Source: Pelagomonas calceolata | Lineage: Eukaryota; Sar; Pelagophyceae; Pelagomonadales; Pelagomonadaceae | DNA: 64,000 nucleotides | Direction: 5' to 3' | Assembly (NCBI GenBank): GCA_918797485.1 | Contig: CAKKNE010000001.1 | Span: 1,550,001 to 1,614,000 of the forward strand | Part shown: in pieces, positions 16,603 through 56,143 of the stretch | Layout of the letters: every line of letters starts with the position of its first letter | Position numbering within the stretch: position 1 is the first letter of the stretch | Made by a program: the position numbers and the translations under genes | The notes under the pieces: model-generated | Told to the model about the DNA's origin: nothing | What the model saw: only the letters and a program-made list of their open reading frames with translations | Databases searched by the model: none

Positions 16603-17737
16603 CTATAAACAGTAGTATTTGTGCAGTGCCACGTCCTCGCGGTACATGTCCCGAAGCCAGGCGGCGGTCTTGGCGGAGACGGTGGCCGTGGCATTGCGGC
16701 GTGGACGGCGCGTAGTGCGTAGGTTCGAGTGGCGATGCGATGCTCGCGCCCCGAGCTCCGCGGCGAGCGCGGGGAGATCGTGACGCAACGACTCCGTGCA
16801 GAGGACCCGGAGCCGAACCTCGCCCCGCCTGCAGGCGCACGCGGACCCTACGAGGTACGAGAGCTGCGGCGTAGCGAAGTATTGGTTCACGGCAGTGTTG
16901 AGCCTTCGGAATGAGCTCGCGAGCCCGTCCGGAAACGCGGGGCGTGGGCCGTCACCGAGGCGCTTTCTCCACTCGCGCAGGAGGTTCTCGAGCGTGTCGT
17001 AGCGAAAGTCGGGCCGGTAGCGCCAGCCGCTCTGGAAGCGGCGCACGGGGTCCCGGAGCCTGTGTGGAAATCAACCAGTGCGTCGGGTGCACCCGACATT
17101 TCTTCACTAAGTCATTTCTCGGCGATGACGCGGCCGTGCTGGCTCCGTCGAGCGGTGAGGAACCGGCATCGCCACACCATCGAGCAGGCGTCGCGTCGAT
17201 GGCGTGGAGGTCGACGCGGCGATTCAGCACGAACGCGCCGTAAAAGTTTGATTTCCACACAGCCCGGAGCGTGAGCAGGAAGACGTCGATTTTCTCCTGC
17301 GGTTCTCCGAACGTGTCCAAGGCCGTCGACCAGCGCTTCGTCGTCCTGAGGAGGTGATCCACCGTGATGCGGTGGTCGTGGTGGGATATCAAGCGGTGCG
17401 CCGTCGCCCTGGCGGTGATACGCGCACCGCCGCGCCGTACCGCCTCGCCGAGAAGCAGCCGGCGGCGAGGGAGTCGCGGGACCCCGGCGGGCCGAGCGCG
17501 TCTGTTTCCAACCACGCCGCGCCAGGCCTGCAGCGCGTCCGCGAGCGTCTGCGAGCCCGTGCCGGCGACGGCAAGGTTCGCCACGGCCGCACTGGGCTCG
17601 ATGCGCGAGGTTGCGTTGCATTGGATCGCGGCGCGCAGCAGCCTTTCGGCGTAGTCGGGTCTGCTGACAAGCCGCGACTCGTCGCAGCTTTTGGCGGCAA
17701 CTGCGACCGCGTGGAGGAGGATGAGGCAGCGACGCAT
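16603..17737 (-). CDS. Secreted/Golgi-type sulfotransferase (two exons split by an introner)
   Basis: Likely PAPS-dependent sulfotransferase of the secretory pathway. Exon 1 is 17271-17737 and exon 2 is 16603-17059, giving 307 residues after exact removal of the introner. The N-terminus is a signal peptide or anchor (MRRCLILLHAVAVAA). AVAGTGSQTLADAL fits the 5'-phosphosulfate loop, and LTLRDPVRRFQSGW fits the 3'-phosphate loop; the latter is rebuilt only when the element and one target copy are spliced out together (GC-AG intron 17060-17270, phase 2). The C-terminal part (TESLRHDLPALAAELG) has the usual helical tail. The acceptor carbohydrate or lipid cannot be told. The ATG lies two bases after the stop of an upstream small reading frame on the same strand. 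Confidence 0.75.
17060..17262. mobile_element. Introner element 1 (203 bp, young, full-length)
   Basis: Non-autonomous DNA element with terminal inverted repeats (CTGTGTGGAAATCAA at one end, its complement at the other) inserted in the sulfotransferase gene. Target duplication GCTCCGGG is identical on both sides (17052-17059 and 17263-17270). It lies antisense to the gene if the AACCAGTGCGTC end is called left. It shares nearly its whole length with the element at 32770-32952, so both look recent. The removed intron would begin with the GC of the first target copy and end with the CAG of the element. Confidence 0.92.
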
Positions 17738-17738
17738 A

Positions 17739-17885
17739 TTAGTACAGCAGGACCCTCTTCACGATCTCAGGGCGGCAATAGCCGTGCGCGCGCAGCAACT
17801 CCGGCACCAGTTCCTTGAGTTCGCGGCGCCAAGCCTGCAGTGATTTCAGCCTGCTTTTGACTCCCTTGCATGAGTGGCAGATTTT
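17739..17885 (-). other. Small open frame abutting the sulfotransferase start; possible terminal exon or uORF
   Basis: A 48-codon stretch with no ATG, opened by a stop and ending in TAA two bases before the sulfotransferase ATG. It reads KICHSCKGVKSRLKSL and later YCRPEIVKRVLLY; the CHSCK pair and basic helix look protein-like. It could be the last exon of an undetected upstream gene, a decayed gene fragment, or chance coding within the 5' leader. I could not find a convincing upstream exon: the preceding 150 bases are broken in this frame. Confidence 0.25.
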
Positions 17886-18025
17886 TCACGCGTACGTAGC
17901 CATTGCTCTCTGGACACCATACCTCTCGCAAGGCATGCGCGGCGCCTCTCTGCTGCACAGGCTTGCTGATGCTTCTGCAAGGAGCTGCGCTGAGGGCCCA
18001 GCTGTGGGTATTTTGGACGAGTTCG

Positions 18026-18035
18026 GCGCATGCGC
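18026..18035. promoter_or_regulatory. GCGCATGCGC palindrome (NRF1-like core)
   Basis: Perfect 10-bp palindrome, 30 bases before the CTAGC palindrome at 18066. The same pairing is seen at 30138-30175. In animals this sequence is the NRF1 core; whether any factor reads it here is unknown. Confidence 0.35.
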
Positions 18036-18065
18036 AGGGCTGCCCAGCGCGAGACTCAGGCTAGA

Positions 18066-18082
18066 GCTAGTGTAACGCTAGC
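18066..18082. promoter_or_regulatory. CTAGC-type dispersed palindrome, short form
   Basis: Outer arms GCTAG and CTAGC around TGTAACG. It belongs to the recurrent intergenic family seen at 27177, 30138, 40176, 42484, 44586, 45967, 57011 and 62703. It runs directly into GTGCGGAG, and the 13-mer CTAGCGTGCGGAG recurs at 62611-62623. Confidence 0.5.
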
Positions 18083-18476
18083 GTGCGGAGTCCTAAAAGT
18101 CGTCGCAGCGGCGTCGTCCGGCCGCAGAGGCCTCGCCTATCAGGTCTTTTTAATACAGATTACTATATACACTGGCGTGCAACAGGCTTGCTGTGCGATG
18201 GTGGAATTTGGGTGGGACGGGGCGCGCCGCGGGCGGGCGCACCGGGAGCCACCGGCAGTTTTCGATCGCCGGGGCCGGGACAAGGCAATGGGTGTTGGGT
18301 CAAGCGCGAGCTGGGACAAGGGCTGTTGCTGGTATGTGCAAGGTGCTCGCGGCAAGGGGGCGCGGCGCGGACCGGTCTTGGCGTCCGCGCGCGCCGGCAA
18401 TATAAACAGAGTGGGGTTCGATGAGAGTATGTACAGAACGAGAGAACAGCAGCAGGACGGACCGGGCCGTCGACGT

Positions 18477-20544: not shown

Positions 20545-21959
20545 ATGGCGCCGTCGATCGGCGAGGCCGCGCAGCACCTCCTCGAGAGCTGGACGCGCGA
20601 CGACTGGCACGCGGCGGCCAAATCGGTCACCGTGCGACGCGTGAAACCGGCGCTCATCTTCGGCCTCGCCTTCTGGGCGATGCGGAAGGTCGCCGAGCTC
20701 GCGCAGTTTTACTACAAGAAACGAAAACCGCCGCCGCGGAAGCCGCAGCCCGAGAAGAAGCAGGGCTGGGGATCCATCGTAGCGCTCCTCGGCGTGCTCG
20801 TGACGATCGCGGCCGGCGTCCAGGCCTGGTGCTATCATAGATACGGGCCCTTGTTCTTCTGGGCGGCGGAGAGCAAGCAGCTCGACCTGACGCCGCACGC
20901 CTGGCGCGCGCTCCTCGAGACGCGGAGCGTCGCGTTTATTGGCGGCCACCACCGCGCCGGCACGACGCAGCTCTGGCGGAGCGTCGCGCGGCATGCGGAG
21001 GTTGCGTCCTTCGGCGAGCAGCGGGACTGCGGCCTCGACTTTAGCGAGGGCATCTTCGCGCAGGACGTCTACCCGCGTTTTGGCGTCGGCGAGGTCCAGG
21101 ACTTCCTCGGGAGTTCGTCGACCAAGAACACGGGCCTGGGCCGCTACGCGTTGGGTGCTGTCGAGGACGTCTACTGGACCGAGGGCCACTTTACGGTGAG
21201 CGGCCACGCGCAGGCGCGCGTGCTGAACCGCTTCGGGTTTCTGTGGGACCGGCACTCGGGTTTAGATCAGGCCAAGGTTCTGTTGGAGAAGAGCCCGCCG
21301 AACGCCGTGCTCGCGCGGTACCTGCAAGCATTGGTCGACTGGCCGGACCACGTCCGGGCGCCGGAGAAGACGTGCGCCGCCGACGCGGAGTTTTGCGACG
21401 TCGCGCCGCCGCCCGCGCCGTTATCGTCGCGGGCGCGGTTCATCTTCGTGACGCGGCACCCCATCGCGAACGCGGTCTCGCACCTCGCCTACATGAAGGA
21501 CGGCACGGTCCCCGAGCTCGTGGCGCACTGGGTCGCCGTCGAGGCGTACATGCGGTCGAACGTGCCGCGGCTCGCGCACGTGCGCAAGGTCAAGTTCGAG
21601 GACTTCTGCGCCGTCGCGCCAGTGCGCAAATCACCTAGTGAGTCGAGCAGACGTCGCGTCGATGGCGTGGAGAGACGAAGGCGCCGTGATGTTTGATTCC
21701 CGCACAGGCGCCCGCGGAGTCGCTCCTCGACCTCTGGACGTTCCTGGGCGTCGAGGCGGACCTCGCGGCGGCCGCCGCGGCGACGGCCGACGTGCGGCGC
21801 GACCCCAACAAAATCCACCGCGAGACGTACTGCGCGCCGGTCCGCGCGGGGAACCCGTCCGCCGCCGCGGCCCACGCGGTCCTCGCGGACCGCTTCGCCG
21901 GCGTCATCGAGGACGCGCACGGGTATGCGGTGCGGGACTGGTGTAGCGTCGACGAGTGA
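20545..21959 (+). CDS. Membrane-anchored sulfotransferase-family protein (two exons)
   Basis: Starts at the ATG in GCCATGG; the frame extends upstream but without ATG. About 442 residues. An N-terminal basic region is followed by a membrane segment (SIVALLGVLVTIAAGVQAW), then the catalytic domain: AFIGGHHRAGTTQLWR matches the 5'-phosphosulfate loop and RFIFVTRHPIANAVSHL the 3'-phosphate loop. Exon 2 (from 21708) gives the C-terminal part (APAESLLDLWTFLGVEAD), where sulfotransferases place a helix contacting PAPS. An introner-like intron of 86 bases (21622-21707) is in frame when spliced at GTGCGC; a 5' site at 21613 would also keep frame. It belongs to a different subfamily from the sulfotransferase at 16.6-17.7 kb. 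Substrate unknown. Confidence 0.8.
21620..21707. mobile_element. Introner element 2 (degenerate)
   Basis: About 88 bases beginning CAGTGCGCAAATCACC and ending TTTGATTCCCGCACAG, with the family's internal GTCGCGTCGATGGCGTGGA. Sense orientation. Flanking 8-mers no longer match clearly, so this is one of the older or rearranged copies and its 5' splice site is uncertain. Confidence 0.75.
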
Positions 21960-22322: not shown

Positions 22323-23023
22323 ATGTTCTCCCGAGCCTCTGTGACGCGCGCGATCCTTCTAAGCGTGCTGGCGTGCCGTACTGCATCGCGGCGCCGCTGC
22401 GCCCGCCTACGAGACGCTGCTCGGCTTATCCGACGCGGTGGCGCCGCGGCGGCGGGCGAAACGGGCGCAGTCATGCCTCCTATCGATGAGGAATACGACC
22501 TACTGCTGACGGAAGACTTCGGCGGCGGCGGCGGCGGCGGCGGCGCTGGTTTTCCTTCACACAACGGCGACGACGAGACGCTGCTATATCCAACACTCGC
22601 GTCGACGACGTCGATGCCAAAAACGGATACGAAAAAGGCCTTCTTCCTGTTAGGATTGATCGGTGCGGTGGCCGACCTCGACCGCCGCGCCTTCTTCGTG
22701 GTCGTGGCCGTCACCAACTTGTACGCGATGCGGTTCCTCAAGGCGCACGTGCGCCCGGCCCTCACCAAGTGGATGTGCTGCAACACGCGATTCTCTGTGT
22801 GGAAATCAAGATCACGTCGATGACGTTGGCGCCGGAAACTTGGGTTCCACACAGGCAACTCCTCGACAGCGGCATCGCCCGCACGATACGCACGGAGCGG
22901 ACGATCACGCGGCCCGAGGTCGACACGGTCTGGGACCTGCTAAAGAGCAAGAACAAGCCGACGACCACGGCGTCCGAGCGGGCCGACCCCTGCGAGAAAT
23001 GGCTCGACCAGTGCGGCCGCTAA
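22323..23023 (+). CDS. Unknown membrane protein with glycine run (two exons)
   Basis: Not recognised. ATG in AAAATGTTCTCC. The N-terminus is basic and presequence-like (MFSRASVTRAILLSVLACR). An acidic stretch is followed by nine glycines with a single Ala near 22521-22548, then a hydrophobic segment (AFFLLGLIGAVADLD, AFFVVVAVTNLYAM) that could form one or two membrane passes. Exon 2, from 22855, gives a hydrophilic tail ending CEKWLDQCGR. The intron is introner 3; under exact removal (22787-22854, GC-AG) the junction reads NT-QLLDSG. Alternative splicing at the internal GTGGAA also keeps frame and would add four residues. Confidence 0.6.
22795..22854. mobile_element. Introner element 3 (60 bp, internally deleted)
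   Basis: Begins CTGTGTGGAAATCAAG and ends GGGTTCCACACAG. Flanking 8-mers GCGATTCT (22787-22794) and GCAACTCC (22855-22862) match at five of eight positions, as expected of an older target duplication. It retains the inverted ends but little of the interior. Confidence 0.85.
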
Positions 23024-23245: not shown

Positions 23246-23269
23246 CGCCGGCCAGTTGTGTAGCAACAG

Positions 23270-24680
23270 ATGCACAAGCTCCAACTTATCGCGGCCCTTG
23301 CCCAGGTTGTGGCTGCCCAGGTTGTGGCCACCCAGGCCGCACACAAACACAAGGTCACGAGGCACGCCGTCGCACGGGAGCTCACAGATAGCTACGCCAT
23401 GGACGACGATAGCATTAGGACGGCAGTGGCTGCGTGGACCTCGGATGCGGCGGCGGCCGAGGCGACGTACGGTCATATTTCTACATGGGACACATCGGGG
23501 GTGACGGACATGTCGGAGTTGTTTTGCGCCGGGGACTATTGTGACTACTACAACTCGGGGGCAGCGTCCTTCAACGAGAACATCGGCGCGTGGGATACCA
23601 CCGAAGCCACGAGCATGGCAGGGATGTTCCGGGGCGCCTCATCGTTTAACCAACCTCTTGGCGACTGGAGTTTTGACAATATCATCGATATGCGCTCGAT
23701 GTTCTACGGCGCTTCGGCCTTCGACCAGGACCTCGGCTGGTGCGTTATTCCCGACGATGGCCAGTCGCCACCGGGTGGCATTCTCAACGGCGCATTCGAT
23801 GGCACCCTGTGCGAGTCGACGGCATGCGGCATCGTGGAGGACGGCTGCACGCGGGCGCCGACGACGTCCGCGCCGACCGGCTTCGTGACCCCGCCGTTCA
23901 ACGTTGGCGGCAACACGACGAGCACCTGCATCGCGGCTCCGGACGGAGCGCAACGAACGCCCGATGGATCCGGCAGCTGCGCGGCGGCGTGGCTCTACGA
24001 ACGAGACCGTGAACCCTGGGTGCCTGGCGCCACGGCCTGCTTCGGCCGCGCGAACTTTGGCTGCCAGAAGTGCGATGGCGATGCGCATCCCTGGTGCGAG
24101 GCCGTCGACGACTATGGCAATCATACAGGCTGGCGCTATTCAGAGCATCAATCAAACGTGCACCCGACTGACTTGTTGATTTGTGCACAGGTGCTATTGC
24201 TCCGACGAGGACACGGACGAAGAAAGTAAAGGTACGATAGATTTTTTGGAGATCGACACGATCGACACGACGCCCACGGACGAAGCGTGCATCATCCTGC
24301 ATCACCACTATGGTAGCTCATACGGTCCCATTACTGGAGATTATACATGCGCAACAAGCTGGAAGTATACTGAAGCTATCCACCAAGAGGTCTTTCACTA
24401 TGATGATGATTTACAGACTTGGCAGACTTTGTACGGCTGCGGTCCGCGAACCCTGGACGGATCTGTGTGGAACGGGGATTTCTGGTGCGATGCCGTGGAC
24501 GCTAATGGAGAGTACGTCGGTTGGTGTGAGTGCGAGCCGGCGCCGTCGCCGGCGCCGTCGTCCAGCACCTCGTACTCGCTGACGCCCGCGCCGGCGGCGG
24601 GCACCCTCGGCAGCGACGGCGCGCGCAAGACGACAATTCACTACCTCGGCGCCGCGACGCTCCTCTTCCTGGCGTCCTGA
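23270..24680 (+). CDS. Secreted BspA-like (DUF285) surface protein with duplicated Cys domain
   Basis: Predicted secreted or surface protein of 450 residues. The signal peptide is MHKLQLIAALAQVVAAQ. DUF285/BspA-type repeats follow: ISTWDTSGVTDMSELF, IGAWDTTEATSMAGMF, LGDWSFDNIIDMRSMF. These repeats are widespread on surfaces of microbial eukaryotes and some bacteria. Two similar Cys-rich units come next: one ends WCEAVDDYGNHTGWCYC, the other WCDAVDANGEYVGWCEC. A Pro/Ser spacer and a hydrophobic C-terminus (YLGAATLLFLAS) suggest GPI anchoring. The intron (24133-24190) falls inside the first GWCYC, and the second unit shows what the correct junction should be, supporting exact excision. Ligand and role unknown. 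Confidence 0.8.
24141..24190. mobile_element. Introner element 4 (50 bp)
   Basis: Begins CAGAGCATCAATCAAACG and ends TTGTTGATTTGTGCACAG. Target copies GCGCTATT (24133-24140) and GTGCTATT (24191-24198) differ at one base. No usable GT lies at the start of the element in the right frame, so a GC 5' splice site in the first target copy is the only simple solution. Confidence 0.88.
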
Positions 24681-30307: not shown

Positions 30308-31523
30308 ATGAGTGCCATAGTCACTGCCCACGGCAGCGATGGCGAGGCCGTGCAATTTTCCAACGCCAGCGATGGCGACGACGGCGACGACGTGCAAATC
30401 ACGCCAACGCTGACGCTGCGACGACCGATCTACTGCATGGCCCCGATGGTCGGCCAGAGCGATCGACCCTTCCGGCTCTTGTGCCGCCGGCACGGCACTA
30501 CGCTCTGCTACTCGGAGATGCTGATGGCCGACGAGTTCGCCGCGTCGGCGGCGTACCGACTCGAAGCCCTCGGCGACCGCGTCCGCGACCACCCGCTCAT
30601 CGTCCAGTTTGCCGCCAACGAACCCGACGCCTTCGCGCGAGCGGCCGTCGCGGCGCACGCCATGGGCGCGAGCGGCTGTGATCTTAACATCGGCTGTCCG
30701 CAGCGGCGCGCGCGCGAGGGGTTCTACGGTTCCTGGATGCAGGAGGACTGGGACCTGTGCTGTGCAATCATTGCTGCCGCGCGGGCGGCGTGTCCGCGGG
30801 GCTTCGCAATCACGGCGAAGTTGCGTGTGCAGTACTGTGAGAGAGGCACGAGGCCTTCCACAGAGCGGACCGTGGAATTTGCGCGTCGCCTCGTCGCCGC
30901 GGGCGCGGACCTGATCGCACTACACGCCCGTGTTCGCGGCAGCCCCGAGCTACGGCGCGCCGGCGCTGCAGATCTGACCGTCGTGCGAGCGCTGGTGGAC
31001 GCAGGCCTCGGCGTGCCGATTCTATCGAACGGAAACGTGCGCTCGCGAGAGGACGTTGCTTTGAATCTAAAGGCGACGGGCGCCGATGGTGTGATGGTCG
31101 CCGAAGAGCTGCTGCGCGACCCGTCGCTTTTTGCGCCGGAGAAGCGGTCACCACCTGCGCTCATTAGGGATTACCTCAACCTGTTGCAGGAGTGTGAGTC
31201 GGACGTCCCACGCGAGGACGGCTCCGTGAGCGGCTGTGTGGAAATCAATCAGCGAGCGGCCGTCGCGAGCCTCACGCCATCGAGCGTTGTCCCCACAGGT
31301 GAGTGGTAAGGACGGCGCCGTGACGCGCGCGACGACAGAGGGTGTCGAGCGATACTCCGTGTGGTGGGCTAATATTGAGGTGCTCCGTTGCCATGTCAAA
31401 CGCATGTTAGAGCGCGGCGGGTCGTCGAGCAAGGAGACCCTCCAGCGCAACACCTTCCGGAAGGCGGCGACGCTCGCCGACGTCGACCGCTATCTTCGGG
31501 CGCGGCTACGCCTCCCAGAATAA
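30308..31523 (+). CDS. DUS1: tRNA-dihydrouridine synthase, DUS1-like (two exons)
   Basis: Flavin enzyme reducing uridine to dihydrouridine in the tRNA D-loop; the Dus1 branch acts at positions 16/17. 380 residues. Seen: CMAPMVGQSDRPFRLL (FMN-binding strand start), YSEMLMADEF, PLIVQFAANEPDAFARAA, and CDLNIGCPQRRAREGFYGSW with the catalytic Cys of GCPQ. Also ALHARVRGSP and PILSNGNVRSREDV, typical of the barrel end. Exon 1 ends 31225, exon 2 starts 31299; the intron 31226-31298 (GTGAGC...CACAG, phase 0) is introner 5. The C-terminal tail (RYLRARLRLPE) is short. The stop lies 15 bases from the stop of the convergent cysteinyl-tRNA synthetase gene. Confidence 0.92.
31234..31298. mobile_element. 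Introner element 5 (65 bp)
   Basis: Begins CTGTGTGGAAATCAATCAG and ends GTTGTCCCCACAG. Target copies GTGAGCGG (31226-31233) and GTGAGTGG (31299-31306) differ at one base. The first copy makes a near-consensus GTGAG 5' splice site. Confidence 0.93.
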
Positions 31524-31538
31524 GTTTTGTGTTTACTC

Positions 31539-33646
31539 CTATGCGGCGCTCGCGGCCCCGGCCCATTTCTTCGCGTGCACGTCGAGGCGCTTCTTGAGCT
31601 TCTTGCGCTGGCTCTTCGACACGGGTTCACCCGAGGCGTCGGTCAGCGGCAGGCCGCTCTCGTCGAAGGTACCGTAGCGGCCCGCGAACTCGCCGACCGT
31701 ATACAACTCCTCCGGCGGCGTGTGGCTGTAGTCGAAGGCCGCCGGCGCTTCAGCTTTGGGCGCCTTCGGCTTCGCGGCCTCGGCGACGCGCGGCTGCACG
31801 AGGGTCTCGCCGTCCGGCGTATCCACCAAAGCGAGGCCCCGCTTCACTAAAAACTCAGCGTCTCTCATTTTATCGCTCTCGGCGAGCACCGCGCCGCGCA
31901 GCTTCAGTTTGCTGTCGTCGTCCCTCGCCTCCAGAGCTGCCTTGCGCAGGGTGCCCCGGAAGGCGACGAGCGCCTCGAGCGCCCCGTCGTCGGAATCCTC
32001 TTTACTGGAACTGGAAACGCCGTCCCACGCCCCCGCCGTCTCGACCAGGCCGAGGTCGCGGAGTGACCCCGCCAGGAACGCCGCCGCCGCGTTGACTGGC
32101 TCCGGCACGACGTCCCGTCGCTCCGTCGCGGCCTCGAGGCAGTGCTGCCGCAGGCGCGTCGCGAGGTCCAGCAGCGCCTGGAGCGCCTCCGGGAGGTTCG
32201 CGTCGTCCAGTAACGTCGCCGCGAAGGTCTTTTGCGCGCTGCGGTGCGCCTCATGCAACGCGCGCTCCCTGTCGGTCCAGCGCCGCGGTGCTCTACTCAA
32301 ATCGCCGCTGAGCGCAGTTCGCGCCGCTCTCAAGGAGGCGTCGAAGTCGCGGCGCGCGGCGTCGGCCTCCGCGAGCTTAACTCTAGAATAGGACACCGTC
32401 GACGCGTATCTATGGAGGCCGCAGAAGATGCGGAAGGCCTCGGGGTCCACCGCGTCCTCACCATCTAGCAGTTCGCGGACCGTCACGAAGTTCTTGAGCG
32501 ACTTGCTCATCTTCCTCCCTTCTATATGTAAATGCCCGGTGTGCAACCAACAAGAGCACCACGTCCCCGTCAAGTCAGCATTGCAGCCGCGCCACTGCGC
32601 GATTTCGTTCTCGTGGTGGGGAAAGGCGAGATCTACTCCTCCCGCGTGCAGATCTAAATGTTGACCAAATGCAGCCCGCGTCATCGCACTACATTCAATG
32701 TGCCATCCAGGTCTACCAGCACCCCAAGGAGAGGGCCACGAGATTTCCCCTTCTTTCGCCGCCTTCCACCTGTGTGGAAATCAACCAGTGCGTCGGGTGC
32801 ACGACAATTCTTCACTAAGTCATTTCTCGGCGATGACGTGTCCGTGCTGGCTGAGTCGAGCGCCGAGGAACCGGCATCGCCACGCCATCGAGCAGGCGTC
32901 GCGTTGATGGCGTGGAGGTCGAACGCGCCGTAAAATTTTGATTTCCACACAGCCTTCCACAACGCAAAATCTCGTTGATCTCGTTTGTTGTCCGACGCCG
33001 ACGCCGGGTCCTCCTCGATCAACGCCGCGGCTTGCGCCGCCGCCGTCGAAGTGCCCCTCCCTTCCGCGAAGGCACCATAAGCACCTCCAAGTTTCGCGAC
33101 ATCGAACCACACGCTCCCGTCCGTCGTCGTATACCCATAGCCCTGCTCTACGACCTCTTGGGTGAACTGGACGATGTCCTCGATGTGCTCCGACACCCTC
33201 AATACTAAAGTCGGCTCCCGACACCCGAGTCGCTCCAAGTCTTCGAAAAAATTCGCCTCCTCTACTCGAGCGAGCTCGAGGGGCTCCATTCCTAGCTCCG
33301 CCGCTCTTTTAATAATCTTGTCGTCTATATCGGTAACGCCCATGGCGAAGTCGATCGTCGCGCCTCCAATTGTTTCTGCCGCCCGTCGCACCAGGTCTAA
33401 TGTAACATACGTCCTTGCATGTCCTAAATGCGTCGCGTCGTAGACCGTGGGGCCGCAGGCGTACCACTTCAACGGTTTCTCGTTTTCGACGGGTACGATG
33501 TTCTTGGTGCTCGCGTCGCGCAGTTCCAATGTCGGCATGCGGCTCGCGAGCATCCGCACTGGACTCCGCCGCGGCGCGGGCCGGAGCGCCCGCGCGGCGC
33601 GCGCGACGAGCAGCATTGTGAGGTGGTGCCGGCGGCGGTGGCGCAT
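31539..33646 (-). CDS. CARS: Cysteinyl-tRNA synthetase (two exons)
   Basis: Class I synthetase charging tRNA-Cys. Exon 1 is 32961-33646 and exon 2 is 31539-32769; 638 residues. Seen: KWYACGPTVYDATHLGHART (HIGH-type signature HLGH and zinc Cys), VTDIDDKIIKRA, FALWKAAKEGE across the junction, GRPGWHIECSAM, GGVDLAFPHHENEIAQ and GRKMSKSLKNF (KMSKS). The exon join restores the family sequence exactly when one GTGGAAGG copy and the element are removed (32770-32960, GT-AG, phase 2). The N-terminus has nested ATGs: a basic presequence (MLLVARAARALRPAPRRSP) and a later ATG at MPTLELRD, suggesting organelle and cytosolic forms from one gene. The C-terminal tail is Lys-rich. Confidence 0.96.
32770..32952. 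mobile_element. Introner element 6 (183 bp, young)
   Basis: Inverted ends CTGTGTGGAAATCAA; target duplication GTGGAAGG identical at 32762-32769 and 32953-32960. Interior closely parallels element 1 with one gap of about 12 bases and scattered substitutions. Antisense to the gene, like element 1. Confidence 0.95.
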
Positions 33647-34065: not shown

Positions 34066-35125
34066 ATGCTCAGATACGCCACCTGCTTCATATGCGCAGC
34101 GGCGCCGGAGACGTGCTCGACCATGGGCGCGCCCTGGTTCGGCGCGAGCCCGACCGCGACGCCATTAACGCTCCACCGCCGCGGCTGGGGCGCCTGCGCG
34201 CTGTGTGGAGGCGCCGAGCGGCTCGGCGCCGTCGTCGACGACATCGACGCCACAGCACTCACGAGCGAGCAAGCGGCCCAGATCTTGGATGCGGTGCGCG
34301 CCCACGGCGTCGTCGTGCTCAAGGGCCAGAACCTCACGCGATCCCAACAAGTCGCGTTCACGGCGGCGCTCGGCGAGGTCGTCGTCCTGCCGCACTCCTT
34401 CGAGGGCAAGGACCCGGAGCCGCTGCACCCGGCGATTCAAAGAGTTACGAACTACTTCGCCAACGGGACCTGGAAGGGGCCCGGTTCGAAGTTCGGGGCC
34501 TACTGGCACCAGGACGGCCAGTTCTGGCGGCCGCCGTTACATAACGTGCTCTCGGTGTTGCACTGCCAGAGCGTGCCGCCGGCGGGCGGCGAGACGGGCT
34601 TCGCAGACCTCCGCGCGGCGCTGGCGACGCTGTCGGGGCCGCTGCGCGAACGCGCGGAGCAGCGTGCCAATCGAATTTCGCGGCGCTTTTCCTCTCTGCA
34701 CGCCATCGACGCGACGCGTCCAACCGACTCACTGGTCGAACACAGGCGCGGAGAGCGCGAGCATCGTCGCGTCGGTGCGGGATATTGCTGATTTCGCCGC
34801 CGGCGACGAGGAGGACCTCGCAAAATTCCCGAACGCCACCCACAAGTTCATCCAGCCCCACGCGCTGGATGGGGGGCCGGTCCTCTACGTCGGCAGCCCG
34901 CACATGGTCGTCGAGGGATTGGAAACGCAAGAGGCGGGCCGGGACCTGCTCGGCATGGTCCTCACGCACGCGACGTCGCCGTCGTTCACGTACTTCCACG
35001 CCTGGGACGCGGGCGACGTCGTCGTCTGGGACAATACGCAGACGCTCCACCACTCGATGCCCTACGACCGCTCCTCGCCGGACGTCGTGCGCGAGCTCTA
35101 CCGGACGCAGGCGCGCTTCGCCTGA
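34066..35125 (+). CDS. TauD/TfdA-family 2-oxoglutarate/Fe(II) dioxygenase (two exons)
   Basis: Non-haem iron oxygenase of the taurine dioxygenase fold, 321 residues from the first ATG (MLRYATCFICAAAPE); a second ATG at MGAPWFGASP is possible. Seen: GVVVLKGQNLTRSQQVAF, the iron ligands in YWHQDGQFW (HxD), PPAGGETGFADLRAA, and the distal part VVWDNTQTLHHSMPYD with the third His ligand, then RELYRTQARFA where the oxoglutarate-binding Arg is expected. Exon 1 ends 34651; exon 2 starts 34746. The intron 34652-34745 (GC-AG) is introner 7; exact excision reads RERAESASIV. Substrate not predictable. Confidence 0.85.
34660..34745. mobile_element. Introner element 7 (86 bp, antisense)
   Basis: Begins CAGCGTGCCAATCGAATTTC and ends GGTCGAACACAG. 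Target duplication GCGCGGAG is identical at 34652-34659 and 34746-34753. The interior (CACGCCATCGACGCGACGCG) is the reverse complement of the family interior. Ends are more diverged than the target copies, suggesting a distinct subfamily rather than great age. Confidence 0.9.
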
Positions 35126-42954: not shown

Positions 42955-43116
42955 ATGAGCCGAAGAGCTAGATATGCGACTATCAGCGACGCCACCATCC
43001 AGATGGACCATAACGCCGTTGTTCTATTCACAATCGACCGACTTGCCCGTTCTCCGCGGACGACGGTGCGTACGCGGGGCACTGAATTGGCCCCAGACCG
43101 GTGGTTTGTACAATAA
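42955..43116 (+). CDS. Hypothetical 53-residue protein, first copy of a duplicated frame
   Basis: ATG-initiated frame MSRRARYATISDATIQ continuing MDHNAVVLFTIDRLARS. Its middle 28 codons align with the frame at about 43264-43345 (ATISPCTFP then MDHDAIICFMIDRLARG). Most differences are conservative on this strand. Too short and unsupported to call firmly. Confidence 0.3.
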   Translation: MSRRARYATISDATIQMDHNAVVLFTIDRLARSPRTTVRTRGTELAPDRWFVQ

Positions 43117-43345
43117 ATTTGCGTTTCAGGCGCTTTAGTAGTGGGACGGGCCAGATAACCGGGCTGGACGGCTACTACATTGCTTGAGACCCCACGATGC
43201 TCCGCGCGGCTCGGCTCGGCCGCGAGCCTACTATCTGGCTAATTCGGGCAAAGTACACAGACCTGCGACCATCAGCCCGTGTACCTTCCCCATGGACCAT
43301 GACGCGATCATTTGTTTCATGATCGACCGACTTGCGCGGGGTCCA
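42974..43345 (+). repeat. Diverged tandem duplication, unit about 80 bp, 289 bp apart
   Basis: Copy 1 at about 42974-43054 and copy 2 at about 43263-43343 share ATGGACCAT and ATCGACCGACTTGC at the same spacing. Similarity fades outside these limits. Confidence 0.7.
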
Positions 43346-43896: not shown

Positions 43897-44526
43897 CTAG
43901 ATGCCACCGGCGGCGCGGCGGCGGCGTGGCGTCGTAGGCGTCGTCGGCTCTCGTTGCTCTCGCTCTTGGCGCTGCCGCTCGGCCTCGCCTACAGCTACCA
44001 GCGCCGTGCCGGCGGCGAGCGCGGCGGCGACGCCGATGTGGCGCACGGCGAGAAAAGCCCCGATGCCGACGAGGGCCGCGCCACCGATAGCCAGCGCTAA
44101 CATCTCGCCCGGCTCGAGTGAAGCCTCCGCGGCAGGAGGCGGGGGCGGTGGCCGCCGCGAGTCCTCGTCGAGGAGCGCGCCATCCTCAAAGCGGGACGCA
44201 CGGAGATCATCGACCTCTGCCCGCAGGCGCGACGCCTCCGCTCGGAGCTGGACCGCCTCGCTCTGTACAGACGGGAGGCCGACGCGGCGCCGGATGCCGG
44301 CGTCGCGCGCGAGTTCGCGACCGAGGCTGCTCGCACCCGCTGTGACCTCGTCGACACGTCTCTGTTGCGCTGCACTAGCTGTGACCTCGTCGACGCGTCT
44401 GTGTTGCGCTGTCGGCGTGCTCGGAGCGCTCGGGCTTGGGTTCTCAGGAGCGTCCACAAGCTCCCAGGGCTGCTCGGGCGCTCCTACCTCGTCGAGGTCG
44501 AATGAGCCGTCAGCGGCTGGCTGCAT
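43897..44526 (-). CDS. Unknown membrane protein with coiled coil
   Basis: Not recognised; 209 residues from the ATG at 44526 (MQPAADGSFDLDEVG). The N-terminal half holds a near-duplicate (HRRVDEVTASAAQ, QRRVDEVTAGASS) and a coiled-coil segment (SEAVQLRAEASRLRAEVDDL). A proline run precedes a strongly hydrophobic region (EMLALAIGGAALVGIGAFLAV, then IGVAAALAAGTALVAVG), probably two membrane passes, and a Glu/Arg-rich basic end. A CTAGC palindrome lies 60 bases before the ATG. Confidence 0.65.
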   Translation of the reverse strand: MQPAADGSFDLDEVGAPEQPWELVDAPENPSPSAPSTPTAQHRRVDEVTASAAQQRRVDEVTAGASSLGRELARDAGIRRRVGLPSVQSEAVQLRAEASRLRAEVDDLRASRFEDGALLDEDSRRPPPPPPAAEASLEPGEMLALAIGGAALVGIGAFLAVRHIGVAAALAAGTALVAVGEAERQRQEREQREPTTPTTPRRRRAAGGI

Positions 44527-47124: not shown

Positions 47125-48458
47125 TCACCACGGGATTTGCGAGAAGAAGCGGAGGAACGGCAGCACGTACCCGAGCACGCGATACCCGCAATACGCGAGC
47201 ACGTTGCACAGAGCGAACTTTAACGCGGCCCGCCATGCCAGCCGTACGACTGTTACTACGACAAACGCCATCGCTCGTCCCAACTCCGTCCACGATATCA
47301 AGGCCTCGGGCGATTCGATTCGGGCGGCGAGCGCATCAAGTAAGTCCGGCGAAGGTCCGAGCGCAGCAATTTGAGTACAAATTAAGTCCCACGAAGGTCC
47401 CAACGGCCCCGAGACCGTGCTGACGAAGAACCACAGCATCATAATCACGATCACCGAGGTGACCACATAAACGGCCAGGACGACATCGATGACGTCTTGC
47501 ACGATCAGGGGTGCTTTGCGGCCGAGAAATTCTCGGTAATTGTTGCGGCGGAGATTCAACGATCTCTCCGTGCCGCGGCGTTGGTACACATCGACCGCGG
47601 TGCCTTCGACGAGCTGGCCGTATTTGGGCCATGGTCGCTGCCCTGCGAACTCGACGCACTGAGTGGGCTTGCCGTCGACACCGGTGCACGAGTGCTGGAC
47701 CGTGATGTCGAGCGCGATGCGCGTATCGGCGCACGGGAGAATGCACGAGTCTCCAACGCCATAGGGGTCGTACCTGCAGAGGAAATCAACCAGTTACATC
47801 GCGTCGACGGCGAATCTGACGCAGGGTCTCGCATCACGACGAACGTCTGGCCCTCCTTGAAGACCTGCCCAGCAAACTTCTCCTTCACGAAGCGTTCCAG
47901 GTCGGCCGCGTCGATGTGCGCGCGGCCTAATAAGGGCCCTTCCTCCCAGCCGCATGGCGCGACGCATAGACTGAGCGTCGTGAGGGCCGATGCAGGCGAC
48001 GGAAACCACGGTCGAACCGTCACCTCGTCCCCCTCGTTCATGCCCGTCTCCTCGCGCTGGGCGTAGCCGAGCGACAGGACACCGCGCTCGACGGCGTCGA
48101 GCGCCTGGGCCAGGTAGACCCAGTCGCCGGCACCCGTCGTTACTTGTAAGAAGCAGGGCCCGTCGTCCTGTCGGAAGGCCTGGAAGTCGACGCCGCTGAG
48201 GTAGACCTTGTTCTCGCAGGGGAAGTTTCCGATGCCGTTGGGATAGCACCCGCATTTCAGCGTCGACGGGGGCTCGGTCCGCTGCGCGATCGAGCTCGCG
48301 CCGGCCCGGGGCGCCTCCGGGGAATTCACGCCGCCGCTCCGGAGCGTGCCTGACGACGGCGCCGCGCGAGTGGCGTCGGGACGGTCGGGTCGCCGCGGCG
48401 ACTCGGGCGGCTCGGGCCCGCGCGCCGCGGCGGGTCTCAGTGGTGAGGAGGCCGGCAT
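47125..48458 (-). CDS. Unknown Cys-containing membrane protein (two exons)
   Basis: Not recognised; 424 residues after splicing. Exon 1 is 47833-48458, exon 2 is 47125-47773. A disordered Pro/Arg/Ser head is followed by a folded region with paired Cys (KCGCYPNGIGNFPCENKVYL, ILPCADTRIALDITVQHSC) and, after QRRGTERSLNLRRNNYREF, two or three membrane segments (VLAVYVVTSVIVIMMLWFFV, AMAFVVVTVVRLAW). The topology suggests an extracellular or lumenal Cys domain attached to a membrane stem. The exon join (VVM-YDPYGVGDS) uses introner 8 with a GC 5' site. Confidence 0.7.
47774..47824. mobile_element. Introner element 8 (51 bp)
   Basis: On the plus strand begins CTGCAGAGGAAATCAACCAG and contains CATCGCGTCGACGGCG, the family interior. 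Antisense to the gene. Target copies on the minus strand, GCGAGACC (47825-47832) and GTACGACC (47766-47773), match at five of eight positions. Excision 47774-47832 keeps the frame. Confidence 0.85.
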
Positions 48459-48965
48459 CTTTTGGATTCTTGGGCCCGGCGGCGCCGCGGCGACAGAGAT
48501 TTGCTTTGTAACTGGTAGTCACCTCGAGAATCGAGATCTCCGCACAGAGCGGTCTCTGGCGTCTTAGCCGACGAGGGCGGTCTAAGTGCGGTCTAAATGA
48601 CTATGAATTCACGCCACGCTGCTCGGAGGTGCACAAACGCGCTCGGAGTAATCGCATCGACCGCTCGACTTGCTCGAGCAAAACCGCCGAGCGATGATAA
48701 GGACTGATCCCTGACCTGGCTCGAAACTTGCGTCGAAGGTCCCTGCCGAAGTTTGCGGGATGCGTGAGCCCAAAACCCGAACATGCTCTCCCAATAAAAA
48801 TGCCAAAGGGCAAATCAGGCAATTCGTGAACACAATCACGCCTCTGGCGATGGGACAGCGCTAGAAAAAATAGTGCCGAGGCAGCGCCTCCCCACGACCG
48901 GTGCCCTGCAAAGTAGGCAGGGGCTGCCAAGACACCCTGGCACCTGAGCCCTGGCAATTGAAAGG
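48459..48965. other. Divergent intergenic region
   Basis: About 500 bases, no recognised gene. Frames on the minus strand here lack a domain and overlap the next gene in antisense. No CTAGC palindrome seen. Confidence 0.45.
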
Positions 48966-49832: not shown

Positions 49833-49857
49833 CTGTATATATGATAGCTCTGTTTAC

Positions 49858-51095
49858 CTAGGGGCGCTGTTTGGCCCTGCGCATGAGTCGAGCGCCGCGC
49901 GTGGCAGTGTTCGCCATTTGCGCATCGACGGCGGAAGATACTCGCTGGTGGCGCCTATAAAGCTCTTTGAGGTCGCAGTTGGGCTGCGAGAGGGCGACCG
50001 CGGCGAGCGAGCGATTGGCGGCCGTCGACGACCAGGAAATCGCCTCCGGCGGCAGCACCGGCCGCTCCGCGAGCGCCCCGGAGTGAGCGATGATTCGCGC
50101 CGCCCCCGAGATTTGGATGAAGAAGGGAATCGTCACGAACGCGAAGCCGGATGCCAGCGAGATGACCGGCACCATGCGCCAGCCCCAGCCCAAGTCCCGC
50201 TCCCGGAACAGCCAGACGTCCAGGCCCTGCATAGGCCTCATCGCCTCGAACAAAAGCCCGAGGAACATTCCCCATGCGCTCATCGCGAAGTAGAGGCCCC
50301 CGGTCATCTGTGTGCGAGTCGACCAGTGAGTCGCGTGCGCGTCGCGTCGATGGCGTGCAGGTCATGATTCAGCCACGGGCAGCGAAATTTGATCTGCGCA
50401 CTGCTCCGCACGGGAAGCATCTGTGTACTCCGGAGGGCGTCGCGCAGGTTGTCGACGTGCACCGGAAGATAAACGTGGAGCGCGTAGAGCTGGAACAGCA
50501 CGGCGCAAAACGCGGTGAAGAAGGCGTTCAGGTTGAGCGAGAGGCAAATGATGTGCAGCGGCGGTCCCCGCGCCTGGTCGCGGCCCAGGTCGAAGGCGAT
50601 CAAGGTGAGCAAACCGCCCAGCAGGAGTGCGGACACGAGCATGAATATCTGGGACTGTTCCATGTACGCCTCGCGCAGCCGGTGGCCGTCCAGCGCGTCG
50701 AAGACGGCGCGGTACCAGCCCGGCCGATTCGTGAAGACGAAGGCGACCTCGAGCGGGTTCGGCAGCGTATATCGACGGAACGAGCTCCACAGCGGCCGCC
50801 GCTCGCCTTCCTCGTCGCTTAGGCGAGCCGGGTAAAACCGCGCACTCTGACCCCGCAACGCGAGGCGCAGCTTCGCGACCTGGACCCGCGTCAGCTTCTC
50901 CGCCGCGGCGACGTCCGAGAGCAGATCGCGGCAGAGGTCCTCGTCGGCGGTCTCGAGGACAAACCAATCCACGACAGCGCTCACGCCCTGGGCCATGAGG
51001 GCTGCTGTGCACCGCGGCGCCGCGTCGTCCCCGACGGCCCGCTGGACCACGGCAAGGAGCTCATCACACTCGGCTCGTGGCTCTCTGGCCTCCAT
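49858..51095 (-). CDS. Unknown multi-pass membrane protein with helical N-terminal domain (two exons)
   Basis: Not recognised; 377 residues. ATG at 51095 (MEAREPRAECDELL). The first 110 residues look like a SAM-type helical bundle (VSAVVDWFVLETADEDLCRD, LTRVQVAKLRLALRG). Four or five membrane segments follow (IFMLVSALLLGGLLTLIAF, FFTAFCAVLFQLYALHVYL, YFAMSAWGMFLGLLFEAM, VPVISLASGFAFVTIPFFI). Exon 1 50412-51095 joins exon 2 49858-50307 in phase 0 across introner 9 (QMLP-MTGGLYF). Confidence 0.65.
50308..50403. mobile_element. Introner element 9 (96 bp, antisense)
   Basis: Plus-strand left end CTGTGTGCGAGTCGACCAGTG, right end AAATTTGATCTGCGCACTG, with GTCGCGTCGATGGCGTGCAGG inside. On the gene strand it is preceded by GTGCGGAG (50404-50411), which serves as the 5' splice site in phase 0, and followed by ATGACCGG; the 8-mers match poorly, so the duplication has decayed or was never simple. 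Confidence 0.75.
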
Positions 51096-51281
51096 CCTGG
51101 TGCTGCCCGACGAGCACTGCGCAGGCGAACGCACCCGGACGAGCTACCTGCGCAACGCTTTGCGCTGCCCGATTTGAGATCGAGATCTCGATCTGCGGAG
51201 CCGAGCCGACCCGCACGCGAAGAAGAAAAAGTCAGTTCAGTTAAATTAGACGGCCGAGGTATGCACAAGGAGGGGAGGAGT

Positions 51282-53490: not shown

Positions 53491-53846
53491 CCGTTCGCGT
53501 CGACAGACGTCAAGCGAGTGCTGGGTCCTCTGAGTGCTGGGCCACAGTGCGACGTGCCGTGCCTTAGCGATGCGCCGGAGCAGAGCGCTTGAGTGCTTTT
53601 AATGAATGCGTCGCCTGATGACAAGTGCGGCAAAGCGGCTGCAGCTACGTCGCAATTTGCAAGCCGCTATGGAGCACCCGCACTATAGCGCATCGTGCCT
53701 TGCTGCCGCGCTGCGCGAGCGCATGAGTCACGCCAGGACACATTGAGTGTCGGCAATCGACATATCTCGGACCCACGCATCATCACGCAGCGTGTCGCAT
53801 CGTAGAGCTGGCCCACACTTGAGTACACATAGCGTGCTCTCAACTC
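53491..53846. other. Divergent intergenic region
   Basis: 356 bases between the Pop5-like gene and the acidic protein; no gene or recurrent motif recognised. Confidence 0.45.
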
Positions 53847-54545
53847 ATGTCAGCGCTGGAACAACGCAACAAAAAGCAGCGCGCCGCGCCACCGCAGCGA
53901 GACAAAAGAAATGCGGGAGAAGACACGCTCGACGACGACGACGAGGACGCCGCGACGACGCCGGCGCTCGCCGTCGAGCTCCGGACGGACGGCTACCGCG
54001 TCGCCGCGCTGCTACAGCCAGCACCGCCCGTCGAGGTGAAACGCGCCCGCGGCGCCGCAAAACCGCAGAAACCACCGCCGGCCTTCGGCGAGGTGTGGCC
54101 GTACGGCACGGCAGAAGCGACGGCGCTCCTCCGCGCGCTCGACCGGCGCGTCCTGCCGCGCGCGCTGGCGCCGGGCCTCGCGGGCGTCGTGCGGCTCCGC
54201 GTAGTCGACCGGCGGCCCGGCGGCGGCGGCCCGCGCGAGGTCGCGTGCCGCGTCGGCGTCGGCGACGAGGACGCCGCGGAGCCTGCCGCGCGCCCGCCGC
54301 GGCCCCTGGGCGCGCCGGCACCCAGGCGGTCCCTCGCGGACGCGCTTGATGACGATGGCGGCGACGATTCGGACGACAGCGACGACGACGCGGAGGACGT
54401 CGTCGTCGCGGAGCCCCCGCGCTGCGACGACTTCGTCGACGTCGTTGAAGAGGACGAGGAAGCGGAGGAGGCGTCCGTGGCGGCGCTGCGGGCGCGCCTT
54501 TCGTGCTTGGTCGACGTCGCGCGCGCACACGGTCTTGCTTCCTAG
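53847..54545 (+). CDS. Unknown acidic 232-residue protein
   Basis: Not recognised. Begins MSALEQRNKKQRAAPPQR, nuclear-signal-like. A compact middle domain (FGEVWPYGTAEATALLRALD, VVRLRVVDRRPGGGGPREV) is followed by two long Asp/Glu runs (DDDGGDDSDDSDDDAED) and a C-terminal helix (ALRARLSCLVDVARAHG). The composition suggests a chromatin or ribosome-biogenesis factor, but no domain supports it. Confidence 0.65.
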   Translation: MSALEQRNKKQRAAPPQRDKRNAGEDTLDDDDEDAATTPALAVELRTDGYRVAALLQPAPPVEVKRARGAAKPQKPPPAFGEVWPYGTAEATALLRALDRRVLPRALAPGLAGVVRLRVVDRRPGGGGPREVACRVGVGDEDAAEPAARPPRPLGAPAPRRSLADALDDDGGDDSDDSDDDAEDVVVAEPPRCDDFVDVVEEDEEAEEASVAALRARLSCLVDVARAHGLAS

Positions 54546-54975
54546 CTCGATTTAGTAAGTGTCTTTGTTGTGGTCATGGAGTCTTGCTACGAGTCCCTGT
54601 GGAGTTGTGGCGCGCGGATCGCGGCTCGACGCGACGACGAGGCGCTGCTCATCACGCAGCACCGACCCGGTCGTGGACAGCGCGCCGAGCAGAATTACGC
54701 GACATTGCGGTAAAAGTAGTATCATACATATTTGTCAACGCGCCAGCCGTTTTGCGTATTCGCGACGAGCCAATCGGGAGCAAGGAGCTGCGAAAAAAAG
54801 GGCAACAGTTTTTGGCCATAACTCGCGCTCCCGCGTCGCGCAGTGCTTAGGAAATAGTTGAGACGACTGTCCAAGCAGTTGGCAATTTACTCCGTGACAG
54901 CGAGGCAATAAAAAACAGCCAACAGCCAAAAGGCAAAACGCGCGCCTAGCGGCGAAACACAGCGAAACGACGAAG
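54546..54975. other. Intergenic region
   Basis: 430 bases, no gene. A CCTAGCGGCGAAACACAGC segment near 54947-54965 looks like half of the CTAGC palindrome, about 10 bases before the OTU gene ATG; too incomplete to list with the family. Confidence 0.4.
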
Positions 54976-56143
54976 ATGGGCGGCGCCCGCAAGCGCAAAG
55001 CCCCCTTGATCGAGGACTGCGCCGTCGTCCCGCTGCCCCAGGACGGCGACTGCTTCTACAAGTGCATCGCGCGCGCGTACGCGTCCGCGGGCCTGAGCGC
55101 ATCAGATGAAGCCAACGAAATCATGTTAAATGACAAGGAGAACGAGGTCAAGCGACTCAGAAGGTGCGTCAGTCGGAGGGTCGACGACGGCGTGTTTGCG
55201 CAGTTCGCGGTCGCCCATCAAGCGGGCCTTGACGACTACGCCTTCATGCGCCGCTTACCAGATGCTGCTGCGTTACGAGCCAAACTGTGTGTCAGTGGTG
55301 CGGAGTCCGGCGCGACGCGGTGCGTCTGGGCGAACGAGTTCGAGATTTCGACGCTCTGCGACGTCCTCGAGCTCACGGCGCTGATTGTCGACGAATCGGC
55401 GGCGGAGAACTCGCGGTTCTTGGTCGTGCCGGGCCGCGAGGACAAGCGGAGGTTGCAGCGGCGGTGCTTTGTGGTCTTGCTGAGGACGGCGCGGTCGCAT
55501 TATAATCTCGGGGCTTTTGACGATCGGAGCTTATTTGAGGGGCTGCACCAGGTCCGGAACGGTGTGGAAATCAACCAACGTCGCGTCGATGGCGTGGGGC
55601 GCCCGAAATTTGAATTCCGCACAGGTCCCGAAGCACGTGCGCGAGATGTTTGGCCTACCAAATGCTGACAGACGTGCGACGCCGCGCGCGCCTCGGAGTC
55701 GGCGGGGCCCGCCGCAGAGTCCGCGAAGCCCCGCACTCGACGCGCCGCCGCGCCAGTCGCCGCGGCGGCCCGCCAAGGAGGCGACGCCGCGAAAAAAGGC
55801 CAAGGTCGAGGCGCCGCCGCCACCGGCCGCCGCGCCGGCCAAGAAAAAACCTCCGTTCCGCGCCTTCGAGGAGCGCTGGGAGCGCCGCGCGACCCACAAA
55901 CGGTCCGCCGCGGCCGAGAAGCAGCTCCTCGCGAAGTACGGTGGCCGCGAGTTTCGTGACGATGATGGCGCATACATAATCTCCACCGAAAATCTCGAGT
56001 GGTCCGCAGAAGAAGGCGAGTGGACCGTGCTGGCCCAGAAGAAGCGGAAGAAGAAGGAGGAGTACGAGGGCTACGTCGTCAACGCGCAGCTGCGGCGCAT
56101 GATCGCCCGATCGCTGCCCGCGCGCGACGTCCAGCGGAAATAA
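54976..56143 (+). CDS. OTU-family deubiquitinase (two exons)
   Basis: Cysteine protease removing ubiquitin, 364 residues. VVPLPQDGDCFYKCIARAY carries the Asp-Gly-Asp-Cys catalytic loop; RTARSHYNLG carries the catalytic His; CVWANEFEISTLCDVL is the expected middle segment. Exon 1 ends 55551 in phase 0 after EGLHQ; exon 2 begins 55625 with VPKHVREMFGLPNAD. The C-terminal half is a basic Pro/Arg/Ala tail, then FRAFEERWERRATHKRS and a compact acidic-aromatic end (DDGAYIISTENLEWSAEEGE). The intron is introner 10. Confidence 0.9.
55560..55624. mobile_element. Introner element 10 (65 bp, sense)
   Basis: Begins CGGTGTGGAAATCAACCAACG and ends TTTGAATTCCGCACAG. Target copies GTCCGGAA (55552-55559) and GTCCCGAA (55625-55632) differ at one base. 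Interior GTCGCGTCGATGGCGTGG is the family core. Confidence 0.93.

What the first reader, a model, noticed from the sequence alone, without database searches (positions are those of the whole stretch)
17052..55632. A family of introner elements makes most introns in this window
At least ten introns (17060, 21620, 22795, 24141, 31234, 32770, 34660, 47774, 50308, 55560) begin CTGTGTGGAAATC or a variant and end with the inverted form ...CACAG. Six have flanking 8-mers matching at 7 or 8 of 8 positions and two more at 5 of 8. I see almost no conventional introns (only AMT and PsbP-like) and no copy outside a gene. Transposon-like introners are established for Aureococcus and Micromonas; here the inverted ends, 8-bp duplication and mixed orientations are directly visible.
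Basis: partly seen in the sequence, partly recalled or inferred. Interest (0 to 1): 0.8.

Follow-up and report, generated by a model that had tools for sequence, protein, structure and literature searches.

The report
Transposon-made introns in an algal genome
Ten introns in this stretch of (probably marine algal) DNA are copies of one small mobile element that seems to bring one splice signal with it and to borrow the other from the gene it lands in, a clear example of an already described way in which genes acquire introns.

Summary
All ten listed places carry one short repeat family (50-203 bp) with inverted ends CTGTGTGGAAATC...GATTTCCACACAG; flanking 8-mers match at 8/8 in three, 7/8 in three, 5/8 in two, less in two. 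Correction: the inferred introns start at the first two bases (GT or GC) of the left 8-bp duplicate, not at CTGTG. The inverted end supplies the AG acceptor, the target duplicate the donor. Strict GY is seen on the coding strand in 9 of 10 and AG in 10 of 10, on the mirror strand in 1 and 5 of 10; a codon model trained on other genes picks the assigned strand and frame in 10 of 10. Cysteinyl-tRNA synthetase aligns to relatives without a gap at the join. Three firm copies and a weaker fourth obey the same rule in two eukaryotic contigs filed in a marine 'Spirochaeta' MAG; a fifth copy there lies outside coding sequence with no duplicate found. This is an introner, a MITE-type transposon that makes introns, as described for Aureococcus and others. 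Host, RNA, transposase and copy number are untested. New member of a known kind.

The parts
17060..17270 (-). E1 introner intron, 211 nt, phase 2; element 17060-17262, intronic TSD copy 17263-17270, exonic copy 17052-17059 (GCTCCGGG on coding strand, 8/8); GC donor, CACAG acceptor; gene without Pfam match
21613..21707 (+). E2 introner intron, 95 nt, phase 0, in a sulfotransferase-like gene; element 21620-21707; GT donor 7 nt before the element (removing 8 nt would break the frame); TSD eroded (4/8); an internal donor 9 nt further in would also keep the frame
   Evidence: (Sulfotransfer_3 match, residues 333-408, crosses the join at residue 392)
22787..22854 (+). E3 introner intron, 68 nt, phase 2; element 22795-22854; TSD 5/8; GC donor; gene without Pfam match
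24133..24190 (+). E4 introner intron, 58 nt, phase 2, in a DUF285 protein gene; element 24141-24190; TSD GCGCTATT/GTGCTATT 7/8; GC donor
31226..31298 (+). E5 introner intron, 73 nt, phase 0, in a dihydrouridine synthase gene (join lies beyond the matched domain); element 31234-31298; TSD GTGAGCGG/GTGAGTGG 7/8; GT donor
32770..32960 (-). E6 introner intron, 191 nt, phase 2, in a cysteinyl-tRNA synthetase gene; element 32770-32952; TSD GTGGAAGG 8/8; GT donor; 93% identical to E1 over a 121-nt block
34652..34745 (+). E7 introner intron, 94 nt, phase 1, inside a TauD-type dioxygenase domain; element 34660-34745; TSD GCGCGGAG 8/8; GC donor
47774..47832 (-). E8 introner intron, 59 nt, phase 2; element 47774-47824; TSD 5/8; GC donor; weakest family match (E = 1.5e-5); gene without a Pfam match over the cut-off
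50308..50411 (-). E9 introner intron, 104 nt, phase 0; element 50308-50403; TSD 3/8; GT donor; gene without Pfam match
55552..55624 (+). E10 introner intron, 73 nt, phase 0; element 55560-55624; TSD GTCCGGAA/GTCCCGAA 7/8; GT donor; gene without Pfam match

Best explanation
A family of short non-autonomous DNA transposons (MITE-like introners). A transposase supplied elsewhere inserts the element and duplicates 8 bp of target. Each inverted end of a fresh copy, read outward, ends ...TTGATTTCCACACAG, so whichever way the element lands its downstream end offers a 3' splice site. The 5' splice site comes from the host: if the target 8-mer begins with GT or GC on the coding strand, the intron runs from the first base of the left duplicate to the AG at the end of the element, and splicing restores the original mRNA exactly. 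Insertions that fit are tolerated and then erode as ordinary introns. Shown here by sequence: inverted ends, 8-bp duplicates, both orientations, coding-strand-specific GY and AG, homologues running through joins. Inferred: actual splicing, a transposase in trans, a high genome-wide copy number.
For: Family HMM and alignment. TSDs: 6 of 10 at 7/8 or better, background 0.00126, binomial 8e-16. Strict GY at the first two TSD bases on the coding strand in 9 of 10 against 1 of 10 on the mirror strand (Fisher 0.0005); AG acceptor 10 of 10 against 5 of 10 (0.016). I first assigned strands partly from the GY...AG pattern; as a check, a codon model trained on nine other genes or ORFs ranks the assigned strand and frame first in 10 of 10 (narrow for E1 and E9), and Pfam domains over the cut-off fix it for five (E2, E4, E5, E6, E7). 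Lengths not divisible by 3 in 10 of 10 (chance 0.017). Copies with eroded TSDs (3/8 to 5/8: E2, E3, E8, E9) still have GY and AG and open downstream exons. CysRS aligns to two PDB relatives with no gap at the join (...DFA|LWKAAKEGE...). TauD: one spliced match of 147.2 bits over profile 9-266, against 84.9 and 57.0 bits in two separate frames. Outside copies: L075 6246-6335 and 7295-7359 and L076 1424-1539, each with an 8/8 TSD, and a weaker one, L076 6430-6520 in an acetyl-CoA carboxylase gene, TSD 4/8, not reported by the HMM. The CNNM fragment aligns gap-free over 118 residues to the PDB chain named Metal transporter CNNM4 across the first of these. A strict pattern that finds 5 of the 10 window elements and these three firm copies has 0 hits in 55 other contigs of that bin (656,810 bases).
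Against: No RNA, so splicing is inferred. Restored frames alone prove insertion into coding sequence, not splicing, because removing element plus one duplicate restores the target by definition. E2 needs a 7-nt offset and has a second frame-keeping donor. Half of the window donors are GC (5 of 10). The gain of spliced over summed TauD scores is small (147.2 against 141.9), the unspliced first-frame match runs about 50 nt into the intron, and the PDB alignments have 3-4 residue gaps within about 15 residues after that join. One outside intron (L075 6246-6335, 90 nt) is a multiple of 3. The three firm outside copies were found by a search that required GY and AG, so they do not add to that test. 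The best HMM match in L076 (2328-2397) belongs to a copy with no duplicate found, between two divergent open frames. No transposase was seen.
Confidence: 0.94

Rival explanations
1. Ordinary MITEs that happen to sit in coding genes and are not spliced (gene-breaking insertions).
For: TIRs and TSDs alone would look the same; removing element plus TSD always restores the frame; one copy in a related contig lies outside coding sequence.
Against: GY and AG are specific to the coding strand; copies with eroded TSDs sit in genes whose downstream exons are open; CysRS stays alignable to relatives for some 220 residues past the join; lengths avoid multiples of 3 (10 of 10 in the window).
Confidence: 0.03
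2. The element carries both splice sites (CT|GTGTGG...CACAG), leaving the TSD in the mRNA, as reported for family 4 of Aureococcus sp. MAG_00129 (12 bp added; PMC9860276, passages).
For: A GT lies two bases inside the 5' end in 7 of 10 (E1, E2, E3, E5, E6, E9, E10; ends listed). In E2 that donor would add 9 nt and keep the frame, so for E2 it is not excluded.
Against: In the other six it would leave 8 + 2 = 10 extra nt and shift the frame; E4, E7 and E8 have no GT there. CysRS and CNNM4 relatives align with no extra residues at the join.
Confidence: 0.02
3. Copies spread as RNA by reverse splicing rather than as DNA.
For: The copies are introns.
Against: Terminal inverted repeats, 8-bp target duplications and insertion in both orientations relative to the gene are marks of DNA transposition and are not expected from reverse splicing.
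Confidence: 0.01

Closest known systems
Introner elements of Aureococcus anophagefferens (Huff, Zilberman and Roy 2016, Nature; not held, recalled; mentioned in PMC7789003, passages)
   Same: Direct repeats and terminal inverted repeats of constant length; one splice site carried, the other co-opted from the duplicated target (recalled).
   Different: Sequence identity of the families could not be tested. PMC7789003 says canonical splice motifs there; here half of the window donors are GC.
Introners of Symbiodinium microadriaticum (Fig. 2B legend of PMC9860276, passages)
   Same: TIRs, 3' splice site carried, 5' splice site co-opted from the TSD.
   Different: 4-bp TSD there, 8-bp here.
About 210-bp introns of Pelagomonas calceolata (PMC9481584, passages)
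   Same: The E1 intron is 211 nt; 0.45 introns per gene are reported there.
   Different: No sequence of those introns was available for comparison; 8 of 10 introns here are 58-104 nt.
Introner family 4 of Aureococcus sp. MAG_00129 (Fig. 2F legend of PMC9860276, passages)
   Same: 8-bp TSD.
   Different: Carries both splice sites and adds 12 bp to the mRNA; here, by the preferred reading, nothing is added.

Membership tests
Introner elements (transposon-type) | Several sequence-similar introns at unrelated sites, each with its own flanks | tested here: met
   10 copies in 10 separate gene models, each with its own TSD
Introner elements (transposon-type) | Terminal inverted repeats | tested here: met
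   13 of 13 bp at both ends in E1 and E6; partial in the others
Introner elements (transposon-type) | Target-site duplications | tested here: met
   6 of 10 at 7/8 or better against a background of 0.00126
Introner elements (transposon-type) | One splice site carried, the other co-opted, mRNA unchanged | tested here: met
   By sequence only: coding-strand GY and AG and homologues aligning with no gap at the join for E6 and the first L075 copy
Introner elements (transposon-type) | Spliced out of RNA | not testable with these tools
   No RNA data
Introner elements (transposon-type) | Many copies genome-wide, biased to genes | not testable with these tools
   No genome is held for the window. In two contigs of another record, four copies lie in genes and one outside coding sequence
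Aureococcus IE family (same sequence family) | Sequence homology of TIR and body | not testable with these tools
   No Aureococcus sequence or Huff 2016 text available
hAT superfamily | 8-bp TSD | tested here: met
   the 8-bp length is shared with other superfamilies (recalled)
hAT superfamily | TIR beginning YARNG such as CAGTG (recalled) | tested here: inconclusive
   Main ends are CTGTG; four unused ends begin CAG, two of them CAGTG
hAT superfamily | Cognate hAT transposase | tested here: inconclusive
   Only PF05699 was sought, and only in the bin holding L044: one match at E = 0.99, none over the cut-off; the window's genome is not available

The most novel reading that the evidence does not exclude
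A single base swap in the transposon end (CACTG to CACAG, i.e. CAGTG to CTGTG read inward) turned a hAT-like MITE into an introner by creating an outward-facing AG acceptor. In E2, E4, E7 and E9 the end not used for splicing begins CAG (so reads ...CTG outward), while the used end keeps AG in 10 of 10. If ends of both kinds transpose, the family records the step from plain transposon to intron-maker. Caution: three of the four (E4, E7, E9) have the CAG at the same end of the body and may be one subfamily.
Probability: 0.15. Interest if true: 0.55.

Novelty: new member of a known kind. Interest (0 to 1): 0.36.

Why it matters
It is a compact case in which the proposed steps of transposon-driven intron gain can be read from DNA: fresh copies with perfect ends and 8/8 duplicates, worn copies that keep mainly the splice sites, and strand-specific retention of donor and acceptor. 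It also shows that mis-binned contigs in prokaryotic MAGs can hold introner copies. It does not add a new mechanism.

Tried and rejected
IMG/VR was scanned for CTGTGTGGAAATCAANCAG and for CGTCGCGTCGATGGCGTGGAG (0 hits each) and for the 15-mer TTGATTTCCACACAG (43 stretches); the family HMM finds nothing at E up to 1 in those 43, so they are taken as chance. Rfam (gathering scores) and ARAGORN found nothing in the window. A first codon-usage gene finder trained on the UBR4-like ORF alone marked only 44% of the window and was not used further. Over all 13 bp of the ends, unused and used ends did not differ (23 against 28 mismatches, p = 0.84), and over the first 5 bp the difference was only suggestive (8 against 2, p = 0.08). 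The body motif also occurs outside recognisable introners in the outside contigs, so it alone is not proof of a copy. The automatic frame choice was wrong for E3 and E7 and was corrected and borne out; E9's element end was 2 bp off and corrected. Contigs L108, L110 and L136 carry body-motif or weak HMM matches only (best E = 0.008, L136) and were not counted as copies. The L076 copy at 2255-2397 was left out of the donor and acceptor counts because no duplicate was found.
Full report
Observation. The motif CTGTGTGGAAATC occurs 11 times with up to 2 mismatches against 0.88 expected. Ten elements of 50-203 bp lie at the listed places, and a profile built from them finds all ten again and nothing else below E = 0.01 in the 64 kb. 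E1 and E6 are the long form (203 and 183 bp, 93% identical over a 121-nt block) with perfect 13-bp inverted ends; the other eight are shorter and keep recognisable ends and, in E2, E7, E9 and E10, the body motif GCGTCGCGTCGATGGCGTGGAG at 20-21 of 22 (9-14 of 22 in E3, E4, E5, E8).

Where the intron boundaries are. The coding frames place it 8 nt earlier (7 in E2): removing [left duplicate + element] joins the exons in frame in 10 of 10. Donors are GT in five (E2, E5, E6, E9, E10) and GC in five (E1, E3, E4, E7, E8); acceptors are CACAG in nine and TGCAG in E8. Phases are 0 in four, 1 in one and 2 in five.

Which strand codes. I first assigned strands partly from the GY...AG pattern, so this needed a check. 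Pfam domains over the cut-off fix the gene for five of ten (E2, E4, E5, E6, E7); E1, E3, E9 and E10 have none and E8 only one just under the cut-off. A codon model trained on nine other genes or ORFs of the window ranks the assigned strand and frame first of six in 10 of 10, with narrow margins in E1 (6.8 against -3.3) and E9 (18.8 against 9.3).

Does this show splicing? Not by the frames alone, since deleting an insertion with one duplicate always restores the target. Four things do bear on it. First, GY at the start of the duplicate is strand-specific: 9 of 10 on the coding strand, 1 of 10 on the mirror strand (Fisher 0.0005), and the AG acceptor is 10 of 10 against 5 of 10 (0.016). A target preference of the transposase would be symmetric. 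Second, copies with eroded duplicates (E2, E3, E8, E9) keep GY, AG and open downstream exons. Third, none of the ten lengths is a multiple of 3 (chance 0.017), so retention would shift the frame. Fourth, protein homology runs across joins: CysRS at ...DFA|LWKAAKEGEISW with no gap at the join in the two alignments shown, TauD (147.2 bits spliced, 84.9 and 57.0 in two separate frames), and Sulfotransfer_3 in E2 (residues 333-408, join at 392). TauD is the weaker witness: the sum of the two parts is 141.9, the unspliced first-frame match runs about 50 nt into the intron, and the PDB alignments have 3-4 residue gaps shortly after the join.

Copies elsewhere. One scan of prokaryotic genome contigs with CTGTGTGGAAATCAAYCAG gave one hit, contig NZGT01000054.1, filed under Spirochaeta sp. 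MED672. It and a second contig of that bin (L076, L075) are evidently eukaryotic: a multi-domain acetyl-CoA carboxylase and a CNNM-type transporter, both with interrupted frames. L075 6246-6335 and 7295-7359 and L076 1424-1539 have 8/8 duplicates, GT donors and CACAG acceptors and join open frames; they were found by a search that asked for GY and AG. L076 6430-6520 is a weaker, older-looking copy in the carboxylase (duplicate 4/8, not reported by the HMM) that joins ...ENEQPG|SPIFVMQLM. The CNNM fragment aligns without a gap over 118 residues to the PDB chain named Metal transporter CNNM4. The strict pattern, which finds 5 of the 10 window elements, finds nothing in 55 other contigs of the bin (656,810 bases). 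With the three firm copies, 12 of 13 introns are not multiples of 3; the exception is L075 6246-6335 (90 nt). Against a strict gene-only rule: the best HMM match of L076 (2328-2397) belongs to a copy at 2255-2397 for which no duplicate was found and which lies between two divergent, similar open frames starting at 2250 (minus) and 2436 (plus), so outside coding sequence as far as I can tell.

Orientation. Judged by the body motif, 7 elements run against the gene and 3 with it; six of these calls are strong (motif 20-22 of 22: E1, E6, E7, E9 against; E2, E10 with) and four weak (E3, E4, E5, E8). Either inverted end therefore serves as acceptor. The end carries TTGAT-TTCC-ACACAG; TTGAY lies within the last 30 nt of 8 of 13 introns, which may act as a branch site (inference).

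Ends. The end not used as acceptor has lost its outward AG in 5 of 10 (E2, E4, E7, E9 to CAG; E10 to CGG), the used end in none. Over the whole 13 bp, used and unused ends do not differ, so any constraint lies on the last bases only. The CAG form resembles hAT ends (YARNG, recalled) and with the 8-bp duplicates suggests a hAT-like transposase; this is unproven. A PF05699 search in the outside bin gave nothing over the cut-off.

Context. The first 16.4 kb of the window is a single open frame with UBR-box and UBR4 ligase domains, so the source is eukaryotic. The host is not identified. G+C of 57-70%, introners with TIRs and 8-bp duplicates, the 211-nt intron and copies in a bin whose name suggests the Mediterranean fit a pelagophyte-like marine alga, but this is inference.

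What is known. Introners that carry the 3' splice site and take the 5' site from the TSD are described (PMC9860276, passages, whose methods also allow for opposite-orientation insertion); A. anophagefferens introners have direct repeats and constant TIRs (PMC7789003, passages); Pelagomonas has an intron-length peak near 210 bp, called there the characteristic length of introners (PMC9481584, passages). Huff 2016 was not held and is recalled. The family is therefore at best a new member of a known kind, and may be already catalogued for its species.

Noticed in passing
window 3-16457 (+): A single open frame of 5,484 codons with UBR box and UBR4-type E3 ligase domains: a 16-kb gene stretch without any interruption beside genes that carry introners.
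   Followed up: partly
window 48535-48547: A stray end-like match (CTGTGCGGAGATC on the minus strand, 2 mismatches) just outside the modelled E8 frame, not matched by the family HMM; possibly an eroded non-coding copy.
   Followed up: no
NZGT01000054.1 (L044/L076) and L075: Eukaryotic contigs filed in a bacterial MAG (Spirochaeta sp. MED672) in a prokaryotic species collection: contamination.
   Followed up: partly
L076 1950-2740: Two divergent open frames with similar products (MSDATT...VIAVGWRLLTVPFCRGFAGIEAFNAF and MSDANV...VIAVGYRLLTAPFCEGFAGIEAFCAF) flank a family copy that has no visible duplicates: an inverted gene pair with the element in the middle.
   Followed up: partly
L075, L076, L108, L110, L136: The motif GTCGCGTCGATGGCGTG and variants (up to 3 mismatches) occurs in these contigs also away from recognisable introners, as if it were a wider repeat of those genomes.
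   Followed up: no
window 44333-44410 and 42970-43338: A tandem 39-nt repeat (90% identical) and an 80-nt direct repeat (71%), unrelated to the introners as far as seen.
   Followed up: no
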